Of a stretch of 64,000 bases of DNA, positions 34,683 through 57,947 are shown one piece after another. Under the pieces are notes generated by a model. It saw only the letters and a list, made by a program, of their open reading frames with translations, was not told the origin of the DNA and did no database searches. The stretch lies in the NCBI GenBank assembly GCA_040880525.1, contig JBBDIG010000021.1, positions 1 through 64,000 of the forward strand, read 5' to 3'. The DNA is from Bacteroidia bacterium. GTDB lineage: Bacteria > Bacteroidota > Bacteroidia > CAILMK01 > JBBDIG01. Every line of letters begins with the position of its first letter. The stretch's first letter is position 1. The position numbers were made by a program, and so were the translations under genes.

Positions 34683-36143
34683 ATGAATTTCAGACAGGAC
34701 GATACAATTGCTGCAATAGCCACGGCTGCCGGCCCTGCGGCAGTAGGCATGATTCGTATTTCAGGTAAGAATGCTTTTTCCAGCGTGAATCCACTTTTCA
34801 TCGGCAAGGATCTGACTTCAGTAAAAAGCCATACCCTTCATTACGGTACTTTACAGCATGAGGGACAAACCCTGGACGAGGTGGTGATCGGTATTTTTCG
34901 CGGACCGAAAAGCTATACAGGCGAGGATGTGCTCGAGATCAGTTGTCACGGCTCCTCGGTGGTGCTTGAGCGTGTGATGCAGGCATTGATGCTTCAGGGA
35001 ATTCGCCCGGCAAAAGCCGGAGAGTTTACCATGCGTGCTTTCCTGAATGGGAAGATGGACCTCAGCCAGGCAGAGGCCGTGGCCGACCTCATCAACTCCG
35101 AATCGGAGGCGGCCTATAAAACCGCACTTTTCCAGATGCGGGGTGGGTTTGCAGAAAAAATAAAGCAACTGCGCGGACGGCTGGTTCACTTCACGGCACT
35201 CATTGAATTGGAGCTGGATTTTGCGGAGGAAGATGTGGAATTTGCCAACCGCGACCAATTCCGACAGTTGATTACAGAAATAAAGGACAATGTCAGTGGC
35301 CTGCTAAAATCTTTTCAGTTGGGCAACGTCATCAAAAAGGGCGTATCCGTAACCATTGCCGGCAGGCCCAACGCAGGTAAAAGCACGCTGCTCAATGCCC
35401 TGCTTCAGGAAGAGCGCGCCATCGTCAGCGAAATCCCCGGTACCACGCGCGATACGATTGAGGACACCATCAGCATCAACGGCATCCTCTTCCGGTTTAC
35501 TGACACGGCAGGAATCCGCGAAGCCGGGGATGAGATAGAGCGCATCGGCATTGAACGCACCCGCCAGAGCATCGGCAAGAGCAACATCCTCATCTACTTA
35601 TATGACGTGAATGAACTTACTCCAGCCGAAGTAAAACAGGACCTGGCAGAGCTGAACCTACAGCAGGAACCGGTTGTGGTGGGAAACAAACTGGATTTAA
35701 GTTCTGAGTTCAAAGTTCTGAGTTCAAAGTTCCGGGTTCAAAGTTCTGAGTTCAAAGTTCAAAGTTCAAAGTTCCGGGTTCAGGGTTCACAACGCGAAAC
35801 TCGCAACGCGGAACCCAGAACCCAGAACCCAGAACCGATATATATATCCTCGAAAACCCATGAGGGCATTGACCAGCTAACCATGGCATTGCTCAACCGC
35901 GTTAACCTCGGCAAAGGCATCAGCGACTATGGTGTAGTCACCAACCTGCGCCACCACGAAGCGTTGAGCCGCGCCAGCGAGGCCGTCCGCGATGTCCTCT
36001 CCGCCCTCGACAGCGGCCTCACCACCGATCTCCTCACAGTGGACATCCGTAGAGCACTTCAAGCCCTAGGTGAGATCACCGGGGAGATTACTACTGATGA
36101 GATTCTGGGGACTATTTTTTCAAAGTTTTGTATTGGAAAGTAA
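34683..36143 (+). CDS. mnmE: tRNA modification GTPase MnmE, with repeat insertion in the G domain
   Basis: 486 residues from the ATG at 34683 (MNFRQDDTIAAIATA); the frame also opens upstream. With MnmG it forms 5-carboxymethylaminomethyl-uridine at the tRNA wobble position. The N-terminal tetrahydrofolate domain (GAVGMIRISG-type, residues 1-120), a helical domain, and a Ras-like G domain (G1 GRPNAGKS near residue 227, G3 DTAGIR, G4 NKLD near 334-337, G5 SSK near 389) are present, as is the C-terminal catalytic CIGK. About 45 residues of low-complexity sequence encoded by tandem repeats sit between G4 and G5. The last codons form the attachment site of the 21.8 kb island that follows. Confidence 0.95.
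   Translation: MNFRQDDTIAAIATAAGPAAVGMIRISGKNAFSSVNPLFIGKDLTSVKSHTLHYGTLQHEGQTLDEVVIGIFRGPKSYTGEDVLEISCHGSSVVLERVMQALMLQGIRPAKAGEFTMRAFLNGKMDLSQAEAVADLINSESEAAYKTALFQMRGGFAEKIKQLRGRLVHFTALIELELDFAEEDVEFANRDQFRQLITEIKDNVSGLLKSFQLGNVIKKGVSVTIAGRPNAGKSTLLNALLQEERAIVSEIPGTTRDTIEDTISINGILFRFTDTAGIREAGDEIERIGIERTRQSIGKSNILIYLYDVNELTPAEVKQDLAELNLQQEPVVVGNKLDLSSEFKVLSSKFRVQSSEFKVQSSKFRVQGSQRETRNAEPRTQNPEPIYISSKTHEGIDQLTMALLNRVNLGKGISDYGVVTNLRHHEALSRASEAVRDVLSALDSGLTTDLLTVDIRRALQALGEITGEITTDEILGTIFSKFCIGK
35700..35837 (+). repeat. tandem/inverted repeat insertion within mnmE
   Basis: Repeats of the 11-14 base unit AGTTC-TGAGTTCAAAG and AGTTC-CGGGTTC fill 35700-35790. The downstream part (about 35810-35837) consists of AACCCAGAACCC units that are the inverse complement of GGGTTC-type units. 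The block is in frame and translates to SSEFKV/SSKFRVQ-type repeats followed by AEPRTQNPEP. Similar GTTC-rich repeats are usually seen between genes in Bacteroidota, so their presence inside this coding sequence is notable. In mRNA it could form a hairpin. Confidence 0.85.
36129..36143 (+). other. attL core of the island
   Basis: TGTATTGGAAAGTAA, overlapping the last four mnmE codons and stop. Confidence 0.8.
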
Positions 36144-36210
36144 TTACTTTTCAGATGTTTAGCTAATCCTTTCTTAGTTATAGCTTAAAGGCTGTTTTAT
36201 CTATTTTTAT

Positions 36211-36289
36211 TTGTTGCTAACTTTCCTTTTTTGGCATAGATTTGTTGCTAATCTGTTGCTGACATCCCGATTATTGTTGTTAGCAACAA
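36211..36289 (+). repeat. integrase arm-type repeat cluster, left end
   Basis: TTGTTGCTAA occurs at 36211-36220 and 36242-36251, a variant CTGTTGCTGA at 36253-36262, and the inverted TTAGCAACAA at 36280-36289. Such repeats close to an att core are usual for integrase arm sites. The 36241-36262 segment recurs exactly near the right end. Confidence 0.65.
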
Positions 36290-36315
36290 AATATTTAGAA
36301 CACGGGCGAAATTAT

Positions 36316-36364
36316 GATACATAGAGATACATTGGGATACAATGAGAGACAATCTGATACATAC
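36316..36364 (+). repeat. five GATAC repeats at exact 10-base spacing
   Basis: GATAC begins at 36316, 36326, 36336 and 36356, with GAGAC at 36346, each followed by AT or AAT. A 10-base period places all copies on one face of the helix. They lie 28 bases before the ATG of the excisionase-like gene, so they may be an operator or iteron set for its protein or for the integrase. Confidence 0.6.
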
Positions 36365-36391
36365 TTTGGCCACAACAAGACATCACACAAT

Positions 36392-36745
36392 ATGAGCAGC
36401 AACATTAGAGTACCAAAAATCTGTCAGCACTGCGGAACTGAGTTTATTGCCAAGACCACAGTTACCCAATATTGTGGGGACAACTGCGCCAAACGGGCAT
36501 ACAAGAAACGAGTGAGGGAAGCCAAGATTCAAGAGGTAGTACCAACGGCCATCCAGAAGCAAGACTTCATTCAGGAGCAAGTCAGCCAAAAAGCTTTCCT
36601 GAGTATTGCGGAAACCTGTAAACTCCTCGGAACAAGCAGAATGACCCTATACCGCCAAATTAAAACCGGGAACATAAAAGCAGGTAAAGTCGGTAGGCGT
36701 ACGATCATCAAAAGATCATCCATCGAAAAGCTTTTTCAAACATGA
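36392..36745 (+). CDS. excisionase-like HTH protein with zinc-ribbon-like N-terminus
   Basis: 117 residues from the ATG at 36392 (a longer frame opens at 36314, inside the GATAC repeat array, so I reject it). The N-terminus has a Cys4-type motif, C-x2-C...C-x3-C (KICQHCGTEF, YCGDNCAK). The C-terminal half is a MerR-type winged HTH (SIAETCKLLGTSRMTLYRQIKTGNIKAGKVGRRTIIKRSSIEKLF) of the excisionase family. The stop codon overlaps the integrase start as ATGA, so the two are translationally coupled. Probably controls integration and excision of the island. Confidence 0.8.
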   Translation: MSSNIRVPKICQHCGTEFIAKTTVTQYCGDNCAKRAYKKRVREAKIQEVVPTAIQKQDFIQEQVSQKAFLSIAETCKLLGTSRMTLYRQIKTGNIKAGKVGRRTIIKRSSIEKLFQT

Positions 36746-37830
36746 AAGTAACGCTAAGAGAACGCAACCAGGGCGGACAAACCAGCCTCTACCTTGACTA
36801 TTATCACAAGGGCCGGAGAAAGACGGAATCTCTTAAACTATACCTGAACCCTAAAGCCAGGACTAAGGAGGAGAAGGAGATTAATAAAAAGACGCTACAA
36901 CTGGCAGGTACAATTAGAGCACAGCGACAAATCGAAATCCAAAATGGGATCTATGGGTTTCGTGATAATGCGAAACTAAAGGGTAGCTTTACAGCCTACA
37001 TTGGATTACTCACCGAGAGACGAAAAGACAGCTCCGGCAACTACGGGAATTGGGACAGTATGCTTAAACATTTAAAGGAATTTATGCCTGCAAACATAAC
37101 CTTCGCGCAGGTTGACAGGCAGTTTGTCCAGGAGTTCAAGTTTTACCTCGATAAAGAGGCCAGAACCAAAAGCAATGAGCCGCTATCTCAGAACTCCAAA
37201 TACTCCTATTTCAACAAATTTAGGGCAGCACTGAAGCAAGCCGTAAAAGATGAAATCCTTCCAACCAATCCAAGTGAAGGAGTTGAAGTATTCAGGCAGG
37301 GTGAACCGGAGAGAGCATTTTTGACACTGGAAGAACTGCAAGCAGCCGTAAATTCAGAATGTGAAATTCCGTTACTGAAAACCGCCTTCATCTTTTCATG
37401 CCTTAGTGGGCTTCGCTGGTCAGACATACACAAGCTACTTTGGTCTGAGGTGCAACACTCCAAGAGCATGGGGTATTATATCCGTTTCATGCAAAAGAAA
37501 ACTAAGGGGACTGAAACCCTTCCTATCTCAGAGCAAGCCTATAACTTGCTAGGCGAACGCCAGGAGAACAGCCAAAGGGTTTTTGATGGATTAAAATATT
37601 CGGCATGGCACAATATGAAGTTGCAACAATGGATGATGAAGGCAGGTATTTCCAAGACCATCACTTTTCACTGTGCCCGACATACCTATGCTACGTTACA
37701 GCTATCCGCTGGAACAGATATTTACACGGTTTCCAAACTCTTAGGACATAGAGATTTAAAAACAACCCAAGTATACGCCAAGGTTATTGACGACAAAAAA
37801 CGAGAAGCAGCTAATAAAATCAAAATATGA
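36742..37830 (+). CDS. int: tyrosine recombinase / phage-type integrase
   Basis: 362 residues. An N-terminal arm-binding domain (residues about 1-60), a SAM-like core-binding domain (about 110-200) and a catalytic domain (about 220-350) follow the Bacteroidota element pattern. Active-site residues are visible: Arg in SGLRWSDIHKL, H-x-x-R in TFHCARHTYATL, GH in LLGHRDL, and the nucleophile Tyr in TTQVYAKVI. It overlaps the excisionase gene and the following gene by 4 bases each, so the three form one operon. It is the likely integrator of the island at mnmE. Confidence 0.93.
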   Translation: MKVTLRERNQGGQTSLYLDYYHKGRRKTESLKLYLNPKARTKEEKEINKKTLQLAGTIRAQRQIEIQNGIYGFRDNAKLKGSFTAYIGLLTERRKDSSGNYGNWDSMLKHLKEFMPANITFAQVDRQFVQEFKFYLDKEARTKSNEPLSQNSKYSYFNKFRAALKQAVKDEILPTNPSEGVEVFRQGEPERAFLTLEELQAAVNSECEIPLLKTAFIFSCLSGLRWSDIHKLLWSEVQHSKSMGYYIRFMQKKTKGTETLPISEQAYNLLGERQENSQRVFDGLKYSAWHNMKLQQWMMKAGISKTITFHCARHTYATLQLSAGTDIYTVSKLLGHRDLKTTQVYAKVIDDKKREAANKIKI

Positions 37831-38627
37831 GGCCACCAAAAAATTTTCTTTATGCTATTTCCTTTATTGAGATGAGTTCTATAAACTGTCTAAATAATGA
37901 AAGGAAAATCTATGAAATCTGCATAGAAGATTTAGAAGAACTGAGACAAAAGTTGAATTTTATTTCTCTAAATGATGCATACTCCTACTATGTTTTAGAA
38001 AGGATAAGTAAATTCAATGTTTTTCAAAAGAAGGAATTTATAGTTTATCAGTTTTCATTAGTGGAAAATGAAAAACAATGGTTTCTTGATTTGCAGAGTC
38101 TATTAGATAAAGCCCAAACTTTTATGGGTGAAACCTATAACCCCTGGGAGAATTCTCTTAAGGGCATCAATGAAATAATGAAAGAAATATATGAGGAGTA
38201 TTTCAATATTATAGAAGGTAAACCTAACCTTAAGAATAAACAGATTCCATCGAGTACTCATTCATTTACGTATCTTCAATATGCGGTAGACCCCGACAAG
38301 CTTGCCAACCTATATGAAAGTTTAAAATTTACTCACCTGATTGATGCAGGCACGAACCTTTCAAATTTTAATAAGGTATTCTCAAATAAAGAAATTAAAA
38401 CTCCTACAACTTGGACCGGCAGCATCAGTCAGCTTTACTATTTCATCAAACTCATTCATAACGATTGGAAATTAATAAAGAACCTAAAACAAGAGCAATG
38501 GAAAGTAACCTGCCAGTGCTTTGTTGATGCTGATGGGAACTCCTTTGACAGAAAGAAATTTAGGTCAATGAAAAAGCCAGTAAAAACCGCGCACATTATT
38601 GAAAATGCAGCATCCCACTTGAAGTAG
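37827..38627 (+). CDS. hypothetical protein in integrase operon, possibly RteC-like
   Basis: 266 residues, ATG at 37827 overlapping the integrase stop (ATGA). Mostly helical and moderately charged. The C-terminal WTGSISQLYYFIKLIHNDWKLIKN and NSFDRKKFRSMKKP resemble the end of RteC, the excision regulator of Bacteroides conjugative transposons, where a W-x-G or W-x-S stretch and a helical L-x-x-L-I-x-A-L segment precede a tail. The resemblance is weak, so I call it only possible. The location downstream of the integrase fits a regulator of element mobility. Confidence 0.45.
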   Translation: MRPPKNFLYAISFIEMSSINCLNNERKIYEICIEDLEELRQKLNFISLNDAYSYYVLERISKFNVFQKKEFIVYQFSLVENEKQWFLDLQSLLDKAQTFMGETYNPWENSLKGINEIMKEIYEEYFNIIEGKPNLKNKQIPSSTHSFTYLQYAVDPDKLANLYESLKFTHLIDAGTNLSNFNKVFSNKEIKTPTTWTGSISQLYYFIKLIHNDWKLIKNLKQEQWKVTCQCFVDADGNSFDRKKFRSMKKPVKTAHIIENAASHLK

Positions 38628-38628
38628 G

Positions 38629-38744
38629 GCACTCTGCACCCTGCACTATTATTTTTTTTTGCTTTTGTTTAGGCCTTTCTTTCTCAGAGTGAGCTCTTGT
38701 TTTCACCTGACCGAACACTCTGCACTCTGCACTCTGCACTGCAC
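38629..38744 (+). repeat. CACTCTG-type short tandem repeats, two clusters
   Basis: The block 38629-38646 (GCACTCTGCACCCTGCAC) and four further units at 38716-38744 (CACTCTG repeated three times, then CACTGCAC) flank a T-rich stretch. They sit in the gap between two island genes. Confidence 0.55.
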
Positions 38745-38852
38745 CTGCCTTGCTGTGGTCATATCCCCCTAAAACTCAATATATTTTTGAGCCGTATTCG
38801 ACAAACGAATATGGCTTTAGCGCTAAAGTCCATTTCTCACATCATAATTGAC

Positions 38853-39158
38853 ATGAAAATGGACGAAATAATATTACGTCTTGACAATCTCCAACGCCTC
38901 ATAGAGCGCCAGGGGATTCAAACTAAGGAAGTTTTGAACTTCAAAGAGGCTTGCGAGTACTTGGAGCTTTCTCAGTCACACTTGTACAAATTGACAAGTG
39001 CAGGGAGTATTCCGCACTACAAGCCCAATGGGAAGAAGCTTTATTTCAAAAAAAGTGAGTTGGAAAGCTGGTTGCTGCGCAATCGCAATTCCACTCAGGA
39101 TGAAATTGACCAAAAAGCTGCTGATTATCTAATCAAAAAAGGGAGGGTGAAGCTATGA
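38853..39158 (+). CDS. HTH_17/MerR-type DNA-binding protein (excisionase-like)
   Basis: 101 residues from the ATG at 38853 (MKMDEIILRLDN). The frame opens 52 codons earlier, but that part is low-complexity and contains the CACTCTG repeats. The core NFKEACEYLELSQSHLYKLTSAGSIPHYKPNGKKLYFKKSELESWLLRN is a textbook helix-turn-helix of the excisionase/HTH_17 group. It lies directly upstream of the primase-like gene, with an ATGA overlap, and probably regulates transcription of that operon or of excision. Confidence 0.85.
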   Translation: MKMDEIILRLDNLQRLIERQGIQTKEVLNFKEACEYLELSQSHLYKLTSAGSIPHYKPNGKKLYFKKSELESWLLRNRNSTQDEIDQKAADYLIKKGRVKL

Positions 39159-39826
39159 AAGAGATAAATAGTCCCGTCCGTACTGAATCGCATGATGAGT
39201 TCCTCAATTCAGGCAATAATTGCTATCCAAGCGTAGGCAAACACGAGGAATTACAATCTGAACTTGCCGATAATGAATTTAAGAAGATAAAATCACCTGT
39301 ATTCAGCTACTTTAAGAAACCCTTGTTTAATCTGTTTCCAAGTCACACTGTTTCCCTGGTAGATGTATTTCACCTTATTAGGCGAAAAGATTTTAATTGG
39401 GCTACAGATAAACTCCGCAAAATTCAGGATGTAATTGCTTCCAGAAATTTTAAGGCTAAGAATTTTGATTATGTAACCTTTTCTGGTTTGTTCACGCAAA
39501 GAGCTAATGCATATCTGCAAAAACATTCAGGATTACTTACCATCGATTTTGACCACCTTAAGGACATTCCTAACCTCAAATCATCACTGCTGAATGATCG
39601 TTATTTTGAGACTGAGCTACTCTTTACTTCTCCTTCAGGGAATGGCCTCAAATGGATAATTCCAATTGACTTGACTAAAGCAAAACACAAGGAATATTTT
39701 AACGCTGTAGGAAATTATATACTCAAAAACTATCAGGTTAAAATAGATGAAAATGGAAAGGACATATCTAGAGCCTGTTACCTCCCCCACGATCCAGAAG
39801 TATTCATCAATCCCAAATACTTATAG
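39155..39826 (+). CDS. VirE N-terminal/BT4734-type domain protein
   Basis: 223 residues. It matches the N-terminal domain family found ahead of DUF3987 proteins in Bacteroidota elements: LFPSHTVSLVDVFHLIRR, SGLFTQRANAYLQKHSGLLTIDFDHL, then FTSPSGNGLKWIIPIDL and RACYLPHDPEVF. The domain is related to the small-primase (AEP-like) fold and is thought to work with the next gene in replication of the element. The start overlaps the HTH gene by 4 bases and the next gene begins 3 bases after its stop. Confidence 0.75.
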   Translation: MKEINSPVRTESHDEFLNSGNNCYPSVGKHEELQSELADNEFKKIKSPVFSYFKKPLFNLFPSHTVSLVDVFHLIRRKDFNWATDKLRKIQDVIASRNFKAKNFDYVTFSGLFTQRANAYLQKHSGLLTIDFDHLKDIPNLKSSLLNDRYFETELLFTSPSGNGLKWIIPIDLTKAKHKEYFNAVGNYILKNYQVKIDENGKDISRACYLPHDPEVFINPKYL

Positions 39827-39829
39827 GAC

Positions 39830-41647
39830 ATGGAAAGAGAAACATTTAATCCTATGGATTGGCTTGATAAACCTACCCCGCAAAGCAAGGTTACAGAGCA
39901 GCACCAATTCAAGACAGATGCCCAAACAAACGAAGTAGAACGCATCATCCAGTACATTGAAACCAACCGGGTAGATATTACCTCTGCTTACAAAGATTGG
40001 GTAAATGTAGGTTTCGCCTTTGCCCATGAATTTGGGGAGAATGGCCGGAACCTATTTCATAGGGTAAGCCAGTTCTACCCCGACTATTCAGCTCCTGAGT
40101 GCGACACGCAATTTGACAATTGTTTGAAATCAAAAGGTCGTGGGGTTTCACTGAAAACCTTTTTCTACCTCGCAAAGGGTGCTGGAATTGATATTACACC
40201 TCCACGGACAGAAAAACAGGATCAGCACACTTTCAAGAGGGAGAAGCTGAACGGTAGTCAAACTGAATATCACCAGCACGGAAATCAGGAACAGGAAGAA
40301 ATGCCAACATTTCCTGATTCCTTATTTCCTGAACTTCCTGACTTTCTTCAAAGGGTAGTGAAGGCAGCATCCTCTAACGAGGAAAGGGATATTTTGCTCC
40401 TGGGATCCATTGTTACCATCAGTGCCTGTTTACCCAATGTTTTTGGCATATATGATGAGAATCGGGTCTATCCCAATCTGTATCTGTTTATTACAGCACA
40501 GGCATCCGCAGGGAAAGGTCGTTTGGTTCATTGTCGGCAATTGGTTAAACCCATCCATAAAGAACTAAGAGACCAAGCCAAACTCAACAAACAGCAATAT
40601 GAATCAGAAATGGCAGTATACAATTCCAAAAAGAACAGAACCGCTGATATTGAGAAGCCAGTTCCACCGCCTATAATGTCATTTATCATTCCAGCCAATA
40701 ATAGTGCAACAGGCACATATCAGATCTTAAACGATAACAACGGCATCGGACTTTTATTTGAGACTGAAGGTGATACATTAGCCCAAGCTTTTAAAAGTGA
40801 CTATGGGAATTACAGTGATGGGTTTAGAAAAGCTTTTCATCATGAGCCCATAACATATTTTCGAAGAACTGATCGGGAGTACGTAGAAATAGAAAAGCCA
40901 TGCCTTTCAGCGGTTCTTTCTGGTACGCCAAAACAGGTTTCGACTTTGATACCCAATGCGGAAAACGGCTTATTCAGCCGTTTCATTTTCTACTATATGA
41001 ACGTTCGTCCAGTATGGAAGAATGTATTTTCCAACCGAACGGATAATGGTTTAGATAATTACTTTGAAGCATTGGGCAGTGAGTTCTACAAGTTCTATAA
41101 AAGTCTTATGAAAGATGATCTACGCCAGGTTTTGCTAACCGCAGATCAACAAGACCAGTTCCATCAATCCTTTAGACAATTACTGGAAAAGTACTATAGC
41201 CTAAAAGGATTGGATTACATGGCCACGATCTATAGGCTGGGTTTGATAGCCTACCGTTTCTGTATGATATTGACGGTATTGCGGAACATGGAAACAGGCG
41301 ATACAGCCAAGGAGCATATTTGCGAGGAAAGGGATTTTCAGACTGTACAAGCTATGATCAAAGTTTTAGTGAAGCATTCAAGCAAAGTGTTTGGCGAGTT
41401 GCCCCAAGAAGAAATCAAACCCTCACGGAGGAACAAGAAAGAAAAGTTCCTCTATGAGTTACCTTATAACTTCAACCGCCAGAAGTACCTTGAAGTGGCT
41501 AAAGGTTTGGGGATTCCAGACAAGACTGCCGAGGGGTATATTACAAGCTTTGTCACCTCGAACTTGATTCATCGAGAATCCAAAGACCAGTACATAAACA
41601 CCTCACTTGAGGAAATTCAGGATTCTAAGGAAACTAAGGACGGATAA
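39830..41647 (+). CDS. PriCT_2 / DUF3987 replication-type protein
   Basis: 605 residues. Residues about 35-130 match a PriCT_2 domain (NVGFAFAHEFGENGRNLFHRVSQFYPDY...CLKSKGRGVSLKTFFYLAKGAGI). Residues about 150-560 are DUF3987, a primase/helicase-associated ATPase-like region with a P-loop-type ITAQASAGKGRLVH. Such proteins are typical of mobile elements in Bacteroidota and are thought to initiate or support element replication. Likely works with the VirE-N-like protein encoded immediately upstream, making the core self-maintenance module of the island. Confidence 0.82.
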   Translation: MERETFNPMDWLDKPTPQSKVTEQHQFKTDAQTNEVERIIQYIETNRVDITSAYKDWVNVGFAFAHEFGENGRNLFHRVSQFYPDYSAPECDTQFDNCLKSKGRGVSLKTFFYLAKGAGIDITPPRTEKQDQHTFKREKLNGSQTEYHQHGNQEQEEMPTFPDSLFPELPDFLQRVVKAASSNEERDILLLGSIVTISACLPNVFGIYDENRVYPNLYLFITAQASAGKGRLVHCRQLVKPIHKELRDQAKLNKQQYESEMAVYNSKKNRTADIEKPVPPPIMSFIIPANNSATGTYQILNDNNGIGLLFETEGDTLAQAFKSDYGNYSDGFRKAFHHEPITYFRRTDREYVEIEKPCLSAVLSGTPKQVSTLIPNAENGLFSRFIFYYMNVRPVWKNVFSNRTDNGLDNYFEALGSEFYKFYKSLMKDDLRQVLLTADQQDQFHQSFRQLLEKYYSLKGLDYMATIYRLGLIAYRFCMILTVLRNMETGDTAKEHICEERDFQTVQAMIKVLVKHSSKVFGELPQEEIKPSRRNKKEKFLYELPYNFNRQKYLEVAKGLGIPDKTAEGYITSFVTSNLIHRESKDQYINTSLEEIQDSKETKDG

Positions 41648-41823
41648 TCCTTAGTTTCCTCTAATTCCTCAAAATCCTGAAATTAGTTTTCTCCCTACTT
41701 CTTGCTTTTTAATCGTTTTCTTTCAACATTTTGAGATAATTATGGATCTGATAGCAGGGACATTTGGTGCCATCACAGCTACCTGTCTTGTAAACATCAG
41801 GGATCAGACGTGTGATTGCAAAA

Positions 41824-48562: not shown

Positions 48563-48663
48563 GGATAGAGGACATACAGCGGGTACTCTACGGATAGAGG
48601 GCACTGCGCCAGCGAACGAACCAAGAGCATCACAAGTTGTAAGAATATTAAATTTGCGCGGAA

Positions 48664-49323: not shown

Positions 49324-49327
49324 TGCA

Positions 49328-49972
49328 ATGAAAGATAGCCTCCAGATTGAGAACAAAAGCAAGTCATCCAGAACATCAGGTTTTTTTGCCGATAGTTATG
49401 AGCCTGAGCATATTGCAGTAATACAGAATAAGCCTTATGGCTCAGGTAAGTCTAAATTGCCGTTGGAACTGATAAAGGCTATATCGAAAAAGAAACTCCC
49501 ATCCGTGCAGATAATTAACACAGAGACTGCCTCAGAAAATGAGATTATATTGGAATTAATTGATGTAAAGGTAAATATTGATTTCAGGTTTTCTGAAATA
49601 GCAGATGAGATTGAAGCATCCAAGTATATTTTGGAGTTAGAGCAGGGATGGGATGGGGAAAATGCTGAAATCATAAAAAGTGAAATATGGAAAGCCGCCA
49701 CTAAATTTTTGATTAATGCTGCTTTGGAAATCAATAAGGAATATTCGGTTATTATTCAGACCCCGGAAATAAACCCTGTTAAAGATGGATCAATTGATCT
49801 ATCATGGAGAACGGAGAAGGCAAGAATGCTGATCAACGTAAGAGAAAGAGCGGGTGAAATGGTTGCGAATTATTATGGTGATTTCTATAATAATGAAAAA
49901 CCCCGGAAAGGTTCTGATTCACTTGATTCCAATATTGAAGATTTAGTAGTATGGATGAGGAATCTGGTTTAG
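49328..49972 (+). CDS. unknown protein with GWDGE motif
   Basis: 214 residues, ATG at 49328. The stretch ILELEQGWDGENAEIIKSEIWKAATKFLINA (residues about 97-127) resembles a motif I have seen in paired hypothetical proteins (W-D-G followed by I-x-x-x-x-W-x-x-A-x-x-F). The N-terminus is disordered and basic. The C-terminal part is predicted alpha/beta. The end overlaps the start of the next gene by 22 bases, which fits a co-translated two-protein unit. No function assigned. Confidence 0.55.
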   Translation: MKDSLQIENKSKSSRTSGFFADSYEPEHIAVIQNKPYGSGKSKLPLELIKAISKKKLPSVQIINTETASENEIILELIDVKVNIDFRFSEIADEIEASKYILELEQGWDGENAEIIKSEIWKAATKFLINAALEINKEYSVIIQTPEINPVKDGSIDLSWRTEKARMLINVRERAGEMVANYYGDFYNNEKPRKGSDSLDSNIEDLVVWMRNLV

Positions 49973-50499
49973 AAGAAAATCCTTTTGAGGTAAAAGAGAT
50001 CCATGAGGAGCATAATGTATTCAGACAGGTTCATTTTAGCGATTTAGTTGGGCCAAAGAAAAAAAGATTTCCCTCTGAAGCTCATTTTGCCCCAGACCCG
50101 GATGGCCTATCGGTCTATTGGGGTCAAATGATTAATGCAATGGGAGTTCTCATTACCATAGGATTATCCTTTAAAAAAGACGATACCTTTAAAAATCCCA
50201 CGGAATTTAAGGTACTGGAATTCACCGTTTCTTATCTACGTAGTATTGAAGGTGTTCTAGACTTAATTCACACGCCTCAGTTCAATGGAAATCCTGCTGC
50301 GGTTGGATCACCCAATATTCCTTCACACGCCTCAGTTCGCTATGGTATAGAAGATTTAGAGGTTCGGGTTAATTTGAGTGATTATTGCCGCGAGAATCGC
50401 GAAGAAGTGTTTTGCTCCATTAATGCAAACTCAGTATTGGAGGAGGTAGAGCAATTACGACTGAGATTAAATGATACACCATACCATATAGTGAGTTAG
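49951..50499 (+). CDS. unknown protein with RQVHF motif
   Basis: 182 residues, start inside the preceding gene (22-base overlap). The N-terminal NVFRQVHFSDLVGPKKKRFPSEAHFAPDPDGLSVYWG resembles the common R-Q-V-H-P...F-x-P-x-x-x-D-x-x-L-S-V-Y pattern of small proteins found beside restriction or toxin-antitoxin-like genes. A helical middle follows and the C-terminus is unremarkable. No known catalytic motif. With the upstream GWDGE protein it probably forms one functional pair inside the island cargo. Confidence 0.55.
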   Translation: MDEESGLEENPFEVKEIHEEHNVFRQVHFSDLVGPKKKRFPSEAHFAPDPDGLSVYWGQMINAMGVLITIGLSFKKDDTFKNPTEFKVLEFTVSYLRSIEGVLDLIHTPQFNGNPAAVGSPNIPSHASVRYGIEDLEVRVNLSDYCRENREEVFCSINANSVLEEVEQLRLRLNDTPYHIVS

Positions 50500-50525
50500 C
50501 AACAAACTTCTAATGCTGGTTAGTC

Positions 50526-51008
50526 ATGAAGGTTATTACCCTATATGATCGAAAAGTTTCGGTTTTAGGAGACACTCAAATCCTTGACCAACAAAAAACT
50601 GCTTTTTTTTGTAGCCGCAAATTCCCGGCATCCGTAGTCCTCAAAGCTTATGACTGGGCCACCGAAATGCGCGACCAGGGTAGGTGCGTTATTTCCGGCT
50701 TTCACTCACCAATTGAGAAGGACGTGCTTCATTTTCTTCTAAAAGGCACTCAACCCATCATTCTGGTCCATGCCCGGTGTCTGAAGAAACGAGAAGAACC
50801 GGAGGTATTGAAAGCAGTATCAGAAAATCGTTTATTGGTGCTTTCTCCATTCAACGAAGATCAAAAGCGTATCACCAGCAGGTCAGCCTTCATTCGTAAT
50901 CAATTTATGGTTGAAATGGCTGATGAGATTGTGGTAGGTTATGGCAAACAGAGTGATTCAATCGCAAAAATTCTCAATAATAGAATACATATCAAATATT
51001 TAGTATAG
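50526..51008 (+). CDS. DprA/SLOG-like Rossmann-fold protein
   Basis: 160 residues, ATG at 50526. The sequence AFFCSRKFPASVVLKAYDWATEMRDQGRCVISGFHSPIEKDVLHFLLKGTQPIILVHARCL looks like the Rossmann core of DprA/Smf and the wider SLOG (YoqJ/LOG-like) superfamily: a first strand, a helix, the VISGFHSPIEKDVLHFLL loop and a final strand before a basic tail. Its length is shorter than full DprA (no N-terminal SAM or C-terminal winged helix). SLOG proteins bind nucleotide signals or single-stranded DNA. As the last gene of the cluster it could sense nucleic acid or a nucleotide. This is inference. Confidence 0.6.
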   Translation: MKVITLYDRKVSVLGDTQILDQQKTAFFCSRKFPASVVLKAYDWATEMRDQGRCVISGFHSPIEKDVLHFLLKGTQPIILVHARCLKKREEPEVLKAVSENRLLVLSPFNEDQKRITSRSAFIRNQFMVEMADEIVVGYGKQSDSIAKILNNRIHIKYLV

Positions 51009-51588: not shown

Positions 51589-51987
51589 TTAGAACCCCAT
51601 TAAAACCATTATGCTCTCCACCAATTCCTTTGCTGGTTTTAAGCGTTCATCAACAAAAACTAAATGGCGTTGATTTTCATCCTGGTAAACCACATACAAT
51701 TTTCCAGCAATATCAATTATTTCACCCTTTCGATAAGGGACCGGAGTAAGGAGTAAAATATCTTCTCCGCTATCGTCTGTTATAATTGCTTTGCTATAAT
51801 TTAAAACGCTCTCACATTTGGTAACACGAACATTTTCTAAGGTTATCAGACTATCAGCAAAAACTGATTGCCTATTATTTAGATCAGCAATTGTAGTGGC
51901 TGGTTCAATTTGTTTTTCAATAATTCCTTTGCAGGAAAATTGAATTAAAGTGACAATTGACATAATTACCATGAACAAATTTTTCAT
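51589..51987 (-). CDS. putative lipoprotein, OB-fold-like
   Basis: 132 residues. A signal peptide with a lipobox-like IQFSC (Cys19) marks a probable lipoprotein. The mature part carries strands ITLENVRVTK, AIITDDSGEDILLLT and KGEIIDIAGKLYVVYQD, a pattern resembling small OB-fold proteins. The C-terminus is helical. It is the last gene of the leftward group with the DUF4407 protein and coiled-coil protein, about 105 bases after the DUF4407 stop. Function unknown. Membrane anchoring inferred from the lipobox. Confidence 0.55.
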   Translation of the reverse strand: MKNLFMVIMSIVTLIQFSCKGIIEKQIEPATTIADLNNRQSVFADSLITLENVRVTKCESVLNYSKAIITDDSGEDILLLTPVPYRKGEIIDIAGKLYVVYQDENQRHLVFVDERLKPAKELVESIMVLMGF

Positions 51988-52091
51988 TGCTTTAAATTTT
52001 AAGGTGTAAGATGAAATTTGAAGAAGATGCTTGTCTTTAGTCGCAACATGCCCTCAGCCCTTATTGAGGACTGAGGGTATATTACTTACGA

Positions 52092-53321
52092 TTAGCTCAG
52101 GTCGCTGATATAATCGGAACTTGGATCCTTTTTATCCATTAGCCTTCGCAAGGCTTTCTCGAAGTCCAGATAAATGTCTTCTACCTGATCCAAAAGATGG
52201 TTACGGAAGCCTTCATCCTTAACCGTCTTAAAAATTTGAAACTGTACTTGCAATTTATGATCAGATGCACGCTTGAGTTGACCCATGAAGAAATCGAATC
52301 TTTTTTGTGCATCCTGCATAATCGAACTCATTTCGGTGAACTGCAATTTCAATAACTCCGCATTGACAAAGGCACGTTGTTGTTTCACCATCAATTCAGC
52401 CCTAACCTGTTCAGTTTGTTGGTTCACACTGACTGCCGTTGCCCCATTCTGCTTCACAATTTCATGATAAGTATCTCCATCCTTACCTGAACTCAGTTTG
52501 ATCGAGATTGGCACCAATTCAATACTTAGGAAAAACAGCCTTAGTAACCATATGCCCCAAAAGACTGTATTGTCCTCCTTACTCAGCGTTCCTAATGCTC
52601 GCATTCGCCCAAGAAACCCTTCTGCTTGCGCCTTGGTGATTTGCGTAATCTTTTCCTTGCGCTGAAGATTCAGAGCTGCAATTTCAGTGTTTTTCGCACT
52701 TGTATAGATTTTGGCATCTGATTCTGCCGCCTTCCACAATCTTTCCTTTTCTCGTGCGATGGGACCTTTATTAGCCTTTCCAGAGCCGGAAGTGCCATCC
52801 ACTTCACCAATATAGGAAAGGCGCAAGGCTTCCACTTTAGCTGCGGAAGTATTGATTTTATCATTCAAACCTGCGATTTTCACATCAAAGTCAGCATCTA
52901 TGAGGGCCACCTTGTTACTGAGGTTGTCAGAAAGCTTTTCTTGAATCGCATCTTCAAAAACCTTCAACTCCATTGGCACCGCTATCACCACGGCAAAAAT
53001 GGTTGCGAGCAGCAGGCGCGCAATCACTCCCAAATTGATTACACCCGGCTGAGTATTAGCCACAATGGCACGCTCAATCATAAAAATCACAAAACCCCAT
53101 AAAAAACCAAAGCCAAGGGATAGGGGCAAGTTTTCACTAAAGGTGAGTATGGCAAATGTTCCTGATGCAAATCCCAAAATTGGGGTGATCAGGACACAAG
53201 AGCCAATTATCGCCTTTTTTCGCTGTTCTGCGGAGTTACATTGCCTCAAAGTGGCTATGTCACACCCGGCACAACTACACAAGAATTGAGTGAGTAAACC
53301 AATACGTTTCATTGTATTCAT
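52092..53321 (-). CDS. DUF4407 membrane protein
   Basis: 409 residues. The N-terminal about 130 residues have the DUF4407 pattern: CSCAGCDIATLRQC, then three to four hydrophobic segments (KKAIIGSCVLITPILGFASGTFAILTF, LGFLWGFVIFMIERAI, LARLLLATIFAVVIAVPMELKVFEDAI) and a long coiled coil (about 150-230 and 290-400). A fourth transmembrane segment (WGIWLLRLFFLSIELVPISIKL) lies near residue 260. DUF4407 proteins have no established function that I know of. An ATG lies at 53321 and another in frame at 53312. It is 78 bases downstream of a coiled-coil gene on the same strand and forms an operon with it. Confidence 0.82.
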   Translation of the reverse strand: MNTMKRIGLLTQFLCSCAGCDIATLRQCNSAEQRKKAIIGSCVLITPILGFASGTFAILTFSENLPLSLGFGFLWGFVIFMIERAIVANTQPGVINLGVIARLLLATIFAVVIAVPMELKVFEDAIQEKLSDNLSNKVALIDADFDVKIAGLNDKINTSAAKVEALRLSYIGEVDGTSGSGKANKGPIAREKERLWKAAESDAKIYTSAKNTEIAALNLQRKEKITQITKAQAEGFLGRMRALGTLSKEDNTVFWGIWLLRLFFLSIELVPISIKLSSGKDGDTYHEIVKQNGATAVSVNQQTEQVRAELMVKQQRAFVNAELLKLQFTEMSSIMQDAQKRFDFFMGQLKRASDHKLQVQFQIFKTVKDEGFRNHLLDQVEDIYLDFEKALRRLMDKKDPSSDYISDLS

Positions 53322-53399
53322 TTTTAGTTGTTAAAAAGAAAGGTTTTAGTTTGAAACGAACTCCCGTGCATTTTCAAGAACACACGGGAGTTCGTGGGT

Positions 53400-54077
53400 T
53401 CAACTGAATTTCTTCAGCTCTTCTCTGATGATGTTTTCAAAGTTCATCATCAGCTTTTCCAAAAAGTCGAAGTACCTATCCTGCTCACGTTCTATTTGAG
53501 CTGCATACCTGTTGGCCGTTCCAGGGATGTCCGACATGGTTTTCAGAAACTGGTGCTTTTCACGCACCATTTGGATGAAGGCATACTGCCGGTTCTGTAC
53601 ATCTTTCGACAGACCTTCCAATTTGCCCATCATGAATGAAGCTACTTGTGAACGATACTCGGCCTTGATCATCTTCAAAGCCGCATCGTATTTTTCCCGC
53701 ATCCCCTCAAGCATGAACTGCGTGTTGAGTTTGTATAGGTTTAGGCGAAACTGCAAAGCTTCCTTGGCCGTGTTCCTTTCCATCTCCGCAACCAGCTTAT
53801 CCATTTTGTTTGGGAAAATCTTGCGCAGAAGTGGGCGGTTCGTTTCGAGTAACTGTCTTGTCCGCCCATCGATGCTTTGGGCATTTCTGATCATTAGATC
53901 AAAATTGTCATCAGCTCTCTCCACCAGGACTTTGTTCTGCTTATCCTTCATGGCGTTCACATAGGCCGCATTGGTTTGAACCTGCTCATCGCTATGTTGT
54001 GTGAAATTTCCAGAATCAGCTTCCTCGAAGCCACTCTGATGGTTTTCACTCATACCATCTTGGAAGTTTTGTTCCAT
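53400..54077 (-). CDS. coiled-coil protein, unknown
   Basis: 225 residues, ATG at 54077. The protein is almost entirely helical with several heptad-like stretches (about residues 65-125 and 130-200) and an acidic, Gln-rich N-terminus. No membrane segment or known domain. It is the first gene of a leftward group with the DUF4407 protein and the small lipoprotein. The order suggests the coiled-coil protein binds the DUF4407 membrane protein, but that is inference. The divergent 581-codon gene starts about 320 bases away. Confidence 0.6.
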   Translation of the reverse strand: MEQNFQDGMSENHQSGFEEADSGNFTQHSDEQVQTNAAYVNAMKDKQNKVLVERADDNFDLMIRNAQSIDGRTRQLLETNRPLLRKIFPNKMDKLVAEMERNTAKEALQFRLNLYKLNTQFMLEGMREKYDAALKMIKAEYRSQVASFMMGKLEGLSKDVQNRQYAFIQMVREKHQFLKTMSDIPGTANRYAAQIEREQDRYFDFLEKLMMNFENIIREELKKFS

Positions 54078-54371: not shown

Positions 54372-54379
54372 TACTTTTG
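54372..54379 (+). promoter_or_regulatory. -7 promoter box
   Basis: TACTTTTG matches TAnnTTTG, 18 bases upstream of the ATG at 54398. A TTTG lies at 54342-54345, further upstream than the usual spacing. Its position favours the ATG at 54398 over the earlier TTG. Confidence 0.5.
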
Positions 54380-54397
54380 CAGTTGACAAAAGAAGAC

Positions 54398-56122
54398 ATG
54401 GCTGACATACGCATTACCAGAAAAGAGCTAACTGCTCTCAGAGAAGCGGTTGCCAATAAGTTCAAGCAGGCTGACCTCGGTAAAAATCTTTCGATCCAGT
54501 TCAACAGTATGCCAGACAGTTATCAGGCGCTTTCAGATTCGATTAGTAAGGAGGTAGGCTCCAGTCTTTCAAACTCATTTCTACGTGACTTCTTCTACGC
54601 GACTCAAAAGCAGAAGGACAAAGACATTTTCACTTTTCGAGAAGCCACCCTTGATACGCTGAACTTATATGCTCATGGAAAATCCAGGAAAGAATTAGAT
54701 AAGATTGGTGGGCACTACAAACACATCGTTATTTATGCTGGATCAAATGTTCCAAGTGTTGAGGATTTGGGATTTAGCCCCCACCAATTTGACCACATTG
54801 ATGCATGGGCCTATGATGAATTGATTCTCACGGCAAAAGAAGATTCCGTTTACATTACACTGTATGTGAATGAAGCATTTTTAAAAAATAAACGTGGATG
54901 CGTATGGTTAATTAACCTTTTCACACACCACGTCTATGATCTTATAAGAAACCTTACCGTTCGCATTTTCGTCTCCCCTTCCCTAATGGATACATCGCAA
55001 CCTGACAGTGCTCCTCCTCGTTTTGAAATTGCCTCAGAAATTGGCCGGATGGCTATCCTTAATTTTTGGGAGAACGTTAAGGAGACGTTAGAAAAATTTG
55101 AAAAACGTCTGAACAGGGAAGATGGTAAATCAAATTCTGCCATAGGTATAGAAGATTATAACAAGCTATCGGGCTCAGCATTTCGTAATGCTTTGATTTC
55201 TCTGAATGCGTATAGCGCACGGAAGTGGCTTCAGGAACCTTCAATGATTGGCCAGTGGAATCCCGTAGAAGCCTTGAATACATTCCTACGGATAGCTAAA
55301 GACACCGACCCGGAAAAGCTTAGAAATATTATTAAGGATTACCCTAATGAGGATGAGGATTCAAATGGAAAGTTCGCTTTCTATTGTACAATTGGTTACC
55401 GGGGCTATCTGCAGCCAAAGGACCGATCGGAGATGCTTCTATATTTCTTTCTTTTTAATACGAGTTTGATTGAGCATAACCATAAAATCATCCGAATTTT
55501 TTCTCTTCCTTGCAAAACCGCCTCCGGTTCGGAATGGATTTCCCTTTTAAAGGAAAATGAGCAAAGAAATGAAAACCAACAGCTATTTGAGTTTATCTGT
55601 ATGAACGTACTCACGAATGTGGATACCTACCTTTTTGCCTACCTCTTTGATGAAGTTCACCCTTCTCTCCAGAGCGATTTTCAACAGGATTACGTCATCA
55701 GGATAGGGATGAGGGATGGAATTAACAATCCACGACTGAACATTGATACCAGGCTGGTAAGTAATGATTCACTAGGTCAATCCGAAGAAGGTCAATATGA
55801 TAAACTTTACTTAGCATATCCCGAAGAACCAAACGGCATTAATCGGCTAATAGGCATTACTGAAAGAAACGATATAATCCGTTTCTGTGAAGACTATAGA
55901 TTGCGCTTAGAGACTGTTGGCCCTCCAAAAAAGGATGACAAGCGGAGAACCATTAAAATCGATCAAAATAACCTAAAGCCGATCTCATCGCTTCTGGGAC
56001 TGGATGAGGCGAGATTGAAGCAACTTTTCGAGAGGGTCGAAATTGAATTCAATGACATGAGCGAGGTTAATAAGATGAAAAAACTCTCCCAGTTGCCAGA
56101 ACAAGGAAACTCTCCAAAATAA
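54398..56122 (+). CDS. unknown 574-residue protein paired with a radical SAM gene
   Basis: 574 residues from the ATG at 54398; an earlier TTG at 54377 lies inside the promoter box and is rejected. The N-terminal about 100 residues resemble the recurrent Bacteroidota N-terminal domain (ITRKELTALREAV...SNSFLRDFF...FREATLDTLNLYAHG) seen ahead of various regulatory or effector proteins. The rest shows no domain I recognise. A conspicuous His/Asp-rich segment near YAGSNVPSVEDLGFSPHQFDHIDAW does not match a known site. The next gene starts 13 bases after its stop, so the two are an operon and likely act together. Confidence 0.6.
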   Translation: MADIRITRKELTALREAVANKFKQADLGKNLSIQFNSMPDSYQALSDSISKEVGSSLSNSFLRDFFYATQKQKDKDIFTFREATLDTLNLYAHGKSRKELDKIGGHYKHIVIYAGSNVPSVEDLGFSPHQFDHIDAWAYDELILTAKEDSVYITLYVNEAFLKNKRGCVWLINLFTHHVYDLIRNLTVRIFVSPSLMDTSQPDSAPPRFEIASEIGRMAILNFWENVKETLEKFEKRLNREDGKSNSAIGIEDYNKLSGSAFRNALISLNAYSARKWLQEPSMIGQWNPVEALNTFLRIAKDTDPEKLRNIIKDYPNEDEDSNGKFAFYCTIGYRGYLQPKDRSEMLLYFFLFNTSLIEHNHKIIRIFSLPCKTASGSEWISLLKENEQRNENQQLFEFICMNVLTNVDTYLFAYLFDEVHPSLQSDFQQDYVIRIGMRDGINNPRLNIDTRLVSNDSLGQSEEGQYDKLYLAYPEEPNGINRLIGITERNDIIRFCEDYRLRLETVGPPKKDDKRRTIKIDQNNLKPISSLLGLDEARLKQLFERVEIEFNDMSEVNKMKKLSQLPEQGNSPK

Positions 56123-56135
56123 ATTTTAAATTAAG

Positions 56136-57494
56136 ATGAACCAAAGGTCAGTGTTAAGCGACAATGCTCAACAAGAGCGATTATCAATTCAGCCAATAAA
56201 CCTATCTTCCGATCACGTCTATGGCAAGGAGGCAGAAAAATCCTCAAAAAAAATCCGACTTGAGAATACAATAGCCAAAGCTCTTCAGTTAAAAGCGACT
56301 TTAGGTTCCGTTTGGAAATATATACCCGGTCAATTCCCTTCTGATTTTCAGAATTATACTAAAGGATGGAATTCACCGGATAAGGATAACCAACGGAATT
56401 CGGATAATGCGCAAATGTTCTACATTAATTTGGATTTGGAAGATTCCGGGTGCACCAGGAAGTGTTCGCACTGCTTTACCATGGCGGGGCAAATAGATAT
56501 TGAAAGGGGCAGAATCAGAGAGAACAGAGTACAGCCATTAACCCGAAAAATTTTGAACAAAGTTCGTTTGATTGAACAGATTAAAATTGCGCAGGAAGAG
56601 CTTGGGTTAAGATCAGTGCGTCTCTTAGGTCGGGGTGAGCCCACAGAAAGTTCTTATCTACTGGAATTTACAGAGAAGATGGCGGAGTTGGGTGTGGTCA
56701 CTGTTTTGTTTACTCGGGGTCATGTAGTAGGAAATGACATTCATGCAAGAAGGGTTTATAGAGGCTATGGTATTGAAAACGGCTTCCAGCTCGCAGAGCG
56801 GCTATTTGCACAAAACGTGAGTGTAATTCATGGATATTCGGCATTGAATGATACTGTGCATGATGGGATGACAGGTATAGAGGGACATTCAAAGGAATCA
56901 ACCTTAGGTTTACAAAGATTTGTTGAGACAGGGTTCCTCAATCATCATCCGACCCGGCTGGGGATAGAGGCTCCGATAGCTAAGATTAACATGATTGAAT
57001 TTCCAGTTAGTTATGTTTTCTTTCAGTGCATCGGGATTAGCCCAATATTCAATTCCTATATGGTAACAGGCCGGGCTGATCAGAGCTTTTTTGATAAACA
57101 CACGCCCTCCTTTGAAGAAAGGTTAGACCTGCATGCTAAAATTGTTTATTTTATGCGGCAGATGGGCATAAAGGGCCAAGTTGGCCCATACCTTGGGACT
57201 AAAGAATGCCATGATGTAGAACACGGGTTATATATACCCAGTTCAGGCGATGTTAGACCGTGTACCGGCTATGAGTCCATCGAATCAATTCAAGGAGATT
57301 TAAATGTTGAGGATATTCGAGATGTCTGGGCTCACAGTCGGATTAAAGGGCGACAACATATCTGTCCTCCTAAGCTTAATCATGGATTTCCTCTAGACTA
57401 TGTTTCACAACTTGAGGATATGCTTTCCAAAAGAAGCCATCTTTATGACCAAGAATATCAACAGATAATCAGTGGTTTAGGCTTGCAACAGTAG
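56136..57494 (+). CDS. radical SAM enzyme, unknown substrate
   Basis: 452 residues, ATG at 56136. The cluster motif C-x3-C-x2-C is CTRKCSHC (Cys106, Cys110, Cys113), with GRGEPT (165-170) as the SAM-binding GGE-type element and a barrel-like region to about residue 340. The C-terminus has further cysteines (ECHDVEH, RPCTGYE, HICPPK), suggesting an auxiliary cluster as in SPASM proteins. It is not viperin by its motif. The fold is a radical SAM enzyme that generates a 5'-deoxyadenosyl radical. The partner protein 13 bases upstream may be its substrate or chaperone. Confidence 0.85.
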   Translation: MNQRSVLSDNAQQERLSIQPINLSSDHVYGKEAEKSSKKIRLENTIAKALQLKATLGSVWKYIPGQFPSDFQNYTKGWNSPDKDNQRNSDNAQMFYINLDLEDSGCTRKCSHCFTMAGQIDIERGRIRENRVQPLTRKILNKVRLIEQIKIAQEELGLRSVRLLGRGEPTESSYLLEFTEKMAELGVVTVLFTRGHVVGNDIHARRVYRGYGIENGFQLAERLFAQNVSVIHGYSALNDTVHDGMTGIEGHSKESTLGLQRFVETGFLNHHPTRLGIEAPIAKINMIEFPVSYVFFQCIGISPIFNSYMVTGRADQSFFDKHTPSFEERLDLHAKIVYFMRQMGIKGQVGPYLGTKECHDVEHGLYIPSSGDVRPCTGYESIESIQGDLNVEDIRDVWAHSRIKGRQHICPPKLNHGFPLDYVSQLEDMLSKRSHLYDQEYQQIISGLGLQQ

Positions 57495-57870
57495 GCATCT
57501 GATCTCGGGGAAATGAATTTTTAACTCCTCCCAAAAGCCCTCCATCTGACCCAGCAGGTTTGCCCGAAGACTTGAGTACGTCTGCTCAGTTTTACGGAGT
57601 TATTTTGTAGGGCGCCATCCGTAAGATTAGGAGCAAGCGCAGATACTTCTACGTGTTTCGTGTTCTATATACCGGAGATGATGGTAGTCGTTTCTGCTGT
57701 GGGCGACTTCATTTCCTTGTTACCTACTAAGTCGGCCGAGCCGCTGTAGAAGCGGCAGGTTTTGTGGGTTTGGCTTCGAGTTGTAGCGCAGAGTTGGTGT
57801 GCGGGTTTTTGAGTGCAAAGGGATTTGGATTTCTTATTCTTTGCCCATATCCTCCTTTTAGTTGTACTCT

Positions 57871-57892
57871 TTTGTTGCTAATCTGTTGCTGA
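57871..57892 (+). repeat. right-end integrase arm-type repeat
   Basis: Identical to 36241-36262, containing TTGTTGCTAA and CTGTTGCTGA side by side, 40 bases upstream of the attR core. Confidence 0.7.
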
Positions 57893-57932
57893 ATCAATGT
57901 AAGTGACTGAAAAACAATGCGTGAACACATAC

Positions 57933-57947
57933 TGTATTGGGAAGTAA
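57933..57947 (+). other. attR core of the island
   Basis: TGTATTGGGAAGTAA, one synonymous change (GGA to GGG) from the attL core, still encoding the MnmE ending Cys-Ile-Gly-Lys-stop. The flanking sequence does not encode more MnmE. Confidence 0.75.

What the first reader, a model, noticed from the sequence alone, without database searches (positions are those of the whole stretch)
36129..57947. A 21.8 kb island inserted at the CIGK codons of mnmE, with both att cores visible
Seen: TGTATTGG[A/G]AAGTAA at 36129-36143 and 57933-57947, a synonymous third-position difference, and a 22-bp repeat shared near both ends. An integrase and excisionase are next to the left core. Known: SGI1 and relatives use the trmE/mnmE 3' end as attB, encoding the same peptide. 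Inference: the island uses the same hotspot in a different phylum with an unrelated integrase, so the target is a convergent choice.
Basis: partly seen in the sequence, partly recalled or inferred. Interest (0 to 1): 0.82.

Follow-up and report, generated by a model that had tools for sequence, protein, structure and literature searches.

The report
Mobile island at mnmE gene's end
A 21.8 kb mobile DNA island sits exactly at the last codons of the tRNA-modification gene mnmE and rebuilds that gene's end; it belongs to a widespread family of such islands in Bacteroidota, many of whose members also carry an Argonaute gene.

Summary
Cores TGTATTGG[A/G]AAGTAA lie at 36129-36143 and 57933-57947, the only exact copies in the 3.8 Mb genome, and an exact 22-nt repeat lies at 36241-36262 and 57871-57892. 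The island has a backbone shared with relatives (xis, tyrosine integrase, HTH, primase, helicase) and a restriction cargo that is not. Of the 80 integrase relatives held, 74 start directly after mnmE on the same strand. In a phylum-wide sample, 10 of 10 integrases at 49% identity or more follow mnmE, and 8 of 26 below. Paired cores about 18-67 kb apart occur in 40 of 48 genomes. Two empty sites in Winogradskyella show the junction at the core. The right core keeps the host's mnmE end while the island supplies a new one, as in SGI1. 'Convergent with SGI1' is plausible but untested: no SGI1 integrase could be fetched, and both are tyrosine recombinases. Unexpectedly, 39 of 40 paired islands carry a prokaryotic Argonaute; the window's lacks it. 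How these islands move between cells is unknown.

The parts
34683..36143 (+). mnmE (trmE), target gene, open; its last codons are the left core (ORF listed from 34659 with a TTG start)
36129..36143 (+). left core (attL), TGTATTGGAAAGTAA, encodes CIGK and stop
36210..36262 (+). left arm-type sites: TTTGTTGCTAA at 36210 and 36241; 22-nt repeat 36241-36262
   Evidence: TTGTTGC within 200 nt right of the core in 73 of 78 attL
36314..36745 (+). xis-like excisionase/HTH_17 protein
   Evidence: (TIGR01764); match in 76 of 85 loci
36742..37830 (+). tyrosine integrase, 362 aa
   Evidence: match in 85 of 85 loci
37827..38627 (+). 266-aa protein of unknown function, in part of the family
   Evidence: 28 of 85 loci
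38697..39158 (+). second HTH_17 protein (true start uncertain)
   Evidence: 76 of 85 loci
39155..39826 (+). primase, BT4734-like N-terminal domain
   Evidence: 72 of 85 loci
39830..41647 (+). PriCT_2/DUF3987 helicase-like protein
   Evidence: 73 of 85 loci
41812..45189 (+). cargo: PLD plus SNF2-type helicase
   Evidence: weak matches in 2 of 85 loci
45191..48562 (+). cargo: type IIG restriction enzyme-methyltransferase
   Evidence: PDLC03628, E 4.7e-301; weak matches in 13 of 85 loci
48664..51008 (+). cargo: three unknown ORFs and a DprA-like ORF (50526-51008)
   Evidence: 0 of 85 loci
51589..54077 (-). cargo: ORF 51589-51987, DUF4407 protein 52092-53321, unknown ORF 53400-54077
   Evidence: 0 of 85 loci
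54377..57494 (+). cargo: unknown 581-aa protein (54377-56122) and radical-SAM-like protein (56136-57494, weak SPASM and viperin scores)
   Evidence: 0 of 85 loci
57871..57892 (+). right arm-type site, exact copy of 36241-36262
57933..57947 (+). right core (attR), TGTATTGGGAAGTAA; inferred to be the host's original mnmE end
   Evidence: polarity inferred from relatives

Best explanation
36144-57947 is an integrative genomic island of a Bacteroidota family specific for the 3' end of mnmE. Its tyrosine integrase, helped by the adjacent excisionase, recombines attP on the circular island with attB in the last codons of mnmE. Crossover lies in or near TGTATYGG. The island brings its own GGR AAG TAA, which completes mnmE at the left junction, and the host's original end is displaced to the right junction. 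The primase and helicase probably replicate the excised form. The middle is an exchangeable cargo slot, here a PLD-helicase plus type IIG restriction system and unknown genes. Shown: architecture, site specificity in relatives, paired borders, two empty sites and end replacement in relatives. Inferred: that the window's copy excises, and its end polarity. Unknown: the route between cells; no relaxase, conjugation or phage packaging gene was recognised in the proteins scanned.
For: Cores and 22-nt arms. Integrase next to mnmE in 74 of 80 relatives; five of the other six have at most 667 nt of contig upstream and the sixth (L178) is the second element of a tandem array at mnmE. In 395 phylum-wide genomes, integrase matches at 49% identity or more follow mnmE in 10 of 10, below that in 8 of 26. 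Second core, same contig and strand, in 40 of 48 genomes (about 1 expected). TTGTTGC left of the right core in 35 of 40 against 17 of 864 interior windows. Empty site G120: homology to five left flanks ends at 832, and to two right flanks begins at 812 and 818, around the core at 819-833. G142's right core keeps TAG like the empty G120, its left core has TAA. AAG plus TAA in 73 of 78 left cores, 29 of 40 right cores, 11 of 39 island-free ends. Identical integrases in different genera.
Against: No excision, attP or attB reads for the window; no close relative with an empty site. The window's island lacks two genes usual among its close relatives, Argonaute and DUF6266, so its right half is atypical. 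Eight of 48 genomes were not paired. In G120 the homology to three other right flanks begins only at 929 or 998, and no core was seen in the right flanks L269 and L271. L167 has left-core codons GGCAAATAG next to island sequence, against strict end replacement; two left cores end in TGA, one more in TAG, and one (L178, not an mnmE end) has AAATAA.
Confidence: 0.93

Rival explanations
1. The island is immobile: an old insertion whose integrase is kept as a relic, spreading only by descent.
For: No excision data; cargo of the window is unlike that of relatives; right half lacks usual genes; the right flank holds what looks like a broken transposase and a GmrSD fragment.
Against: The int, xis, primase and helicase frames are open and the integrase aligns end to end with relatives; relatives have identical integrases in different genera; presence and absence vary within one genus.
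Confidence: 0.15
2. The right core is a chance match and the true right border lies elsewhere.
For: With 2 mismatches allowed, 2 of 100 shuffles reach two matches; the right core stands in non-coding DNA.
Against: Only two exact copies in 3.8 Mb; exact 22-nt arm repeat with TTGTTGC 61 nt from the core, a spacing recurrent in relatives' right ends.
Confidence: 0.03
3. The mnmE site choice is shared by descent with the SGI1 or GIPmi1 integrases, so it is not convergent.
For: Same core peptide, same polarity of end replacement (PMC9035990 passage), both tyrosine recombinases.
Against: 79 of 80 record titles of the closest relatives name Bacteroidota; Bacteroidota integrases at 46-48% identity with no mnmE within 1.8 kb upstream exist, and the rows known to sit on other contigs than mnmE are at 35% or less, so site users of other kinds lie between; a paper places Bacteroidetes tyrosine integrases of gut bacteria in their own clade (PMC6907783 passage). 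No direct comparison was made.
Confidence: 0.15

Closest known systems
Salmonella genomic island 1 (SGI1/PGI/AGI family)
   Same: [quoted passage not shown] the last 9 bp of attL come from attP and attR keeps the host's end; tandem arrays at the site (PMC9035990 passages).
   Different: No traN, traG, mpsAB or relaxase recognised here; primase/DUF3987 module instead; Bacteroidota hosts; integrase kinship untested.
trmE-specific MobI islands (MGIVchHai6, GIPmi1)
   Same: Same site, restriction-modification cargo, tandem arrays (PMC7449626 passages).
   Different: No MobI-type protein recognised; different hosts and backbone.
dusA- and yicC-specific islands
   Same: Site-specific integrases that use ends of protein-coding genes (PMC8409611 passages).
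   Different: Other target genes.
Phage satellites such as PICIs (recalled)
   Same: int, AlpA/xis-like HTH, primase-helicase, no transfer genes recognised.
   Different: No packaging or capsid genes recognised; carries restriction or metal-efflux cargo.

Membership tests
Tyrosine-recombinase integrative genomic island | Integrase gene at one end beside an att core, direct-repeat cores at both ends | tested here: met
Tyrosine-recombinase integrative genomic island | Empty site in relatives with a single core | tested here: met
   For relatives in Winogradskyella (G120, G137); not possible for the window's species
Tyrosine-recombinase integrative genomic island | Excision to a circle | not testable with these tools
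   no reads
Bacteroidota mnmE island family described here | Integrase of the mnmE clade directly after mnmE | tested here: met
Bacteroidota mnmE island family described here | xis-int-HTH-primase-DUF3987 backbone and TTGTTGC arms | tested here: met
Bacteroidota mnmE island family described here | Argonaute gene and right-end DUF6266 gene (usual among close relatives, not universal) | tested here: not met
   no match in the window (DUF6266 and Argonaute) or in its genome (Argonaute)
SGI1 family | Insertion at 3' end of trmE/mnmE | tested here: met
SGI1 family | Backbone genes traN, traG, mpsAB, sgaC | tested here: not met
   none recognised by Pfam in the 17 island proteins scanned
SGI1 family | Integrase of the SGI1 clade | not testable with these tools
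   no SGI1 integrase could be fetched
trmE-specific MobI islands (MGIVchHai6, GIPmi1) | mobI gene (PF19456) | tested here: not met
   no match
Integrative conjugative element | Relaxase and type IV secretion genes | tested here: not met
   none in the 17 proteins; none among 40 ORFs scanned from six other elements (not every ORF of those was scanned)
Phage satellite (PICI-like) | Packaging or capsid-interference genes | tested here: inconclusive
   none recognised; PHROGs run on eight of the island's proteins only

The most novel reading that the evidence does not exclude
The window's island is an atypical member of a phylum-wide family of mnmE-specific mobile islands whose backbone, in the largest group seen, normally includes a prokaryotic Argonaute, probably without slicer activity. 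There the Argonaute works for the mobile element itself, for instance against competing elements or plasmids or in control of its own replication by the linked primase-helicase, rather than as ordinary cargo.
Probability: 0.3. Interest if true: 0.75.

Novelty: new variant of a known kind. Interest (0 to 1): 0.55.

Why it matters
The mnmE end is a known hotspot in Gammaproteobacteria, where it takes up resistance islands. A Bacteroidota family using the same codons with the same end-replacement logic suggests that a highly conserved C-terminal peptide (CIGK) is a recurrent landing pad, and would make the borders of many unannotated islands predictable. The islands carry restriction systems or metal-efflux genes, and identical integrases in different genera point to recent transfer. 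The regular link with an Argonaute makes the question of what Argonautes do for mobile elements testable in culturable marine bacteria.

Tried and rejected
Chance right core: rejected by the arm repeat and by relatives. Further cores right of the window: only matches with 3 mismatches and no arm context in 64001-143999 of the contig. Direct SGI1 comparison: E. coli genomes in which the mnmE-tnaC interval is broken were looked at; the four fetched hold a chromosomal gene and no annotated integrase within 6 kb; no other Gammaproteobacterial route worked. A viral-contig scan with the core found 7 stretches, one of them (L233) at an mnmE end, with no match to this integrase in the 4.7 kb held; two viral contigs encode integrases at 56% and 49% identity but begin at the integrase, so their site is unknown. 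Structure of the 581-aa cargo protein: one-sequence model, mean pLDDT 33, useless, no fold search made. Papers: among the listed titles and abstract starts I saw none describing mnmE islands in Bacteroidota, or an Argonaute linked to mnmE or to such integrases; several of these lists were cut at 15. The one Staphylococcus paper checked (PMC10821479, passages) mentions mnmE only as a boundary of imported chromosome segments. DUF6266 is in no paper of the library.
Full report
Observation. The left copy is the CIGK* end of mnmE. Beside the left core lie an excisionase-like HTH protein (TIGR01764) and a 362-aa tyrosine recombinase with Phage_int_SAM_5, Phage_integrase and Arm-DNA-bind_5 domains. 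By itself the 15-mer pair is reached by 2 of 100 shuffles when 2 mismatches are allowed; the arms and relatives remove that doubt.

Site specificity across relatives. Among 60 genomes (the window's included), the best integrase matches outside the window lie directly after mnmE on the same strand: G048 (80% identity), G015 (69%), G042 (59%) and a partial one in G013 (54%). Three more mnmE ends (G002, G052, G027) are followed by similar island-side sequence such as TAACTATCTTTC and run off their contigs 121-417 nt later. A scan of GTDB genomes found 220 relatives, of which the best 80 are held. In 74 of 80 MnmE's C-terminus ends 184-683 nt upstream; five of the other six have at most 667 nt of contig upstream, and L178 is the second element of a tandem array whose first element, with a 45%-identical integrase, sits at mnmE. 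Of the 80 record titles 79 name Bacteroidota; L177 is a MAG named Planktophila, probably mis-binned. In an even sample of 395 genomes of the phylum, 34 (the window's included) have an integrase match at E <= 1e-60; I fetched upstream DNA for 36 of the 38 listed matches (not the window itself and not G499:759195). Ten of 10 at 49% identity or more follow mnmE, and 8 of 26 below, within about 1.4 kb on the same strand. So some relatives at 46-48% show no mnmE within 1.8 kb. In the tree 81 rows labelled mnmE form one supported clade (97/97); L242, also at mnmE, groups with a viral-contig row of unknown site, and the rows that lie on other contigs than mnmE are outside. Five of the 81 (L110, L149, L159, L163, L178) carry the label without a directly seen mnmE end, branches among the outsiders are long, and one origin of the site choice is not proven.

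Borders. I chose 50 of the 80 loci, mostly on long contigs; 48 genomes were searched for the core (L120 and L147 not held; the listing was cut, and 30 genomes were repeated with a slightly narrower pattern). Forty of 48 have a second core on the same contig and strand (median 31.8 kb); about one is expected from the reversed-pattern controls. The script's shortest distance, 17.0 kb in G085, is probably not a right end: the core 22.4 kb away has the arm; without it the range is 17.6-66.5 kb. Salibacter (G015 = G107), unpaired, is paired at 40.5 kb; Acidiluteibacter (G083), whose left core ends in TGA, probably is too. Forty right cores were fetched from 39 of the 40 paired genomes (G084 twice, G078 not fetched, and the doubtful G085 core counted). 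TTGTTGC lies within 120 nt left of 35 of these 40, mostly at 48-50, 59-61 or 72 nt, and within 200 nt of 73 of 78 left cores, against 17 of 864 windows inside six islands; the window's right spacing is 61 nt.

Empty sites and polarity. In 60 genomes of the genus of W. psychrotolerans, the gene that follows the right core of G087 has 11 matches of 76% identity or more. By my arithmetic it starts about 0.1-0.3 kb after the mnmE core in G120 and G137, 29-34 kb away in six genomes, 48 kb in G090, 7 kb in G145, and on another contig in G124. In G120 homology to five left flanks stops at 832, with the core at 819-833; homology to right flanks begins at 812 and 818 for two, at 929 for two and at 998 for one. 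In G137 left homology stops at 1118 (core 1105-1119) and right homology begins at 1119 for one and at 1140-1180 for four. No core was seen in the right flanks of G109 and G152. G120's empty mnmE ends in TAG followed by AATC; the right core of the occupied G142 has the same TAG AATC while its left core has TAA. So the host's own end moves to the right and the island provides a new one. In bulk: AAG plus TAA in 73 of 78 left cores, 29 of 40 right cores and 11 of 39 island-free ends that I picked by hand (left against right p 0.003, G085's doubtful core included). This is the polarity reported for SGI1 (PMC9035990, passage). By analogy the window's host had GGG AAG TAA, and the island supplied GGA AAG TAA. 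Exceptions are L167 and a few TGA or TAG left cores.

Backbone and cargo. tblastn of the window's island proteins against 85 loci (L101-L180, two viral, three from relatives; Salibacter twice): xis 76, int 85, HTH 76, primase 72, DUF3987 73, the 266-aa protein 28, PLD-helicase 2 (weak), type IIG 13 (weak), the other nine cargo proteins 0. Most loci end 10 kb right of the integrase, so cargo counts are lower bounds. Sampled cargo elsewhere: type I and III restriction-modification, GmrSD, copper/cation efflux and MerT-like genes. No relaxase, conjugation or phage structural gene was recognised in the ORFs scanned.

Argonaute link. Three small islands encode an Argonaute (PADLOC pAgo). With one of these as query, 47 of 48 genomes with the integrase match (not G085), and it lies between the cores in 39 of 40 pairs. 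Those genomes were chosen by integrase similarity and contig length. In the less selected 395-genome set 9 have it at E <= 1e-60: 4 of the 6 genomes with integrase identity of 60% or more (the window's genome is one of the 6; distance about 11-18 kb), and 5 of the other 389 (Fisher p 2e-6). Among the 60 genomes it is strong only in G015, inside its mnmE island, with a fragment in G013 and a 27% match in G009; the window's genome, G048 and G042 have none, and G511 has none at the cut-off. Its PIWI part aligns best to AfAgo (AF1318); the first catalytic aspartate seems missing, a judgement from recalled motifs. A DUF6266 gene matches in 37 of the 40 right-end loci but not in the window.

Known or new. 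mnmE as a hotspot in Gammaproteobacteria is known (PMC9035990, PMC7449626, PMC8409611; passages seen). The searches named in Tried and rejected showed me no Bacteroidota counterpart; only listings were seen, and the library is open-access only. The site is a known kind; the family, its host range and its Argonaute link appear new. Convergence remains an inference.

Noticed in passing
L234:12889-14988, L235:4654-6747, L236:5541-7640: Argonaute gene inside 39 of 40 paired mnmE islands of relatives, absent from the window.
   Followed up: partly
L234:16867-17508, L315:10610-11251, L317:6044-6685: DUF6266 gene, function unknown, matching in 37 of 40 right-end loci of the family; in no paper of the library.
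   Followed up: partly
window 35699-35836: mnmE contains an in-frame array of 7/14-nt repeats (AAGTTCA, GAACCCA) just after the NKLD motif, adding a low-complexity stretch to the GTPase.
   Followed up: no
window 36316-36363: Tandem 10-nt GATACA-type repeats overlapping the start of xis; similar repeats with other letters are visible at this place in G015 and G048. Possible regulator or Xis sites.
   Followed up: no
window 58184-60159: Right flank: two overlapping minus-strand ORFs that look like a broken transposase (no Pfam match to the one scanned), and a GmrSD_N fragment split between two frames; perhaps remains of an earlier island at the hotspot.
   Followed up: no
L242 (G106), L185/L186 (G084), L219 (G061), L272 (G145): More than two mnmE-type cores in a row: apparent tandem arrays at one mnmE end.
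   Followed up: partly
L139-L143, L153/L155, L109/G048: Identical integrase proteins in different genera, a sign of recent transfer.
   Followed up: partly
L177: A contig filed under Candidatus Planktophila carries this integrase after an mnmE end like those of Bacteroidota; probably mis-binned.
   Followed up: no
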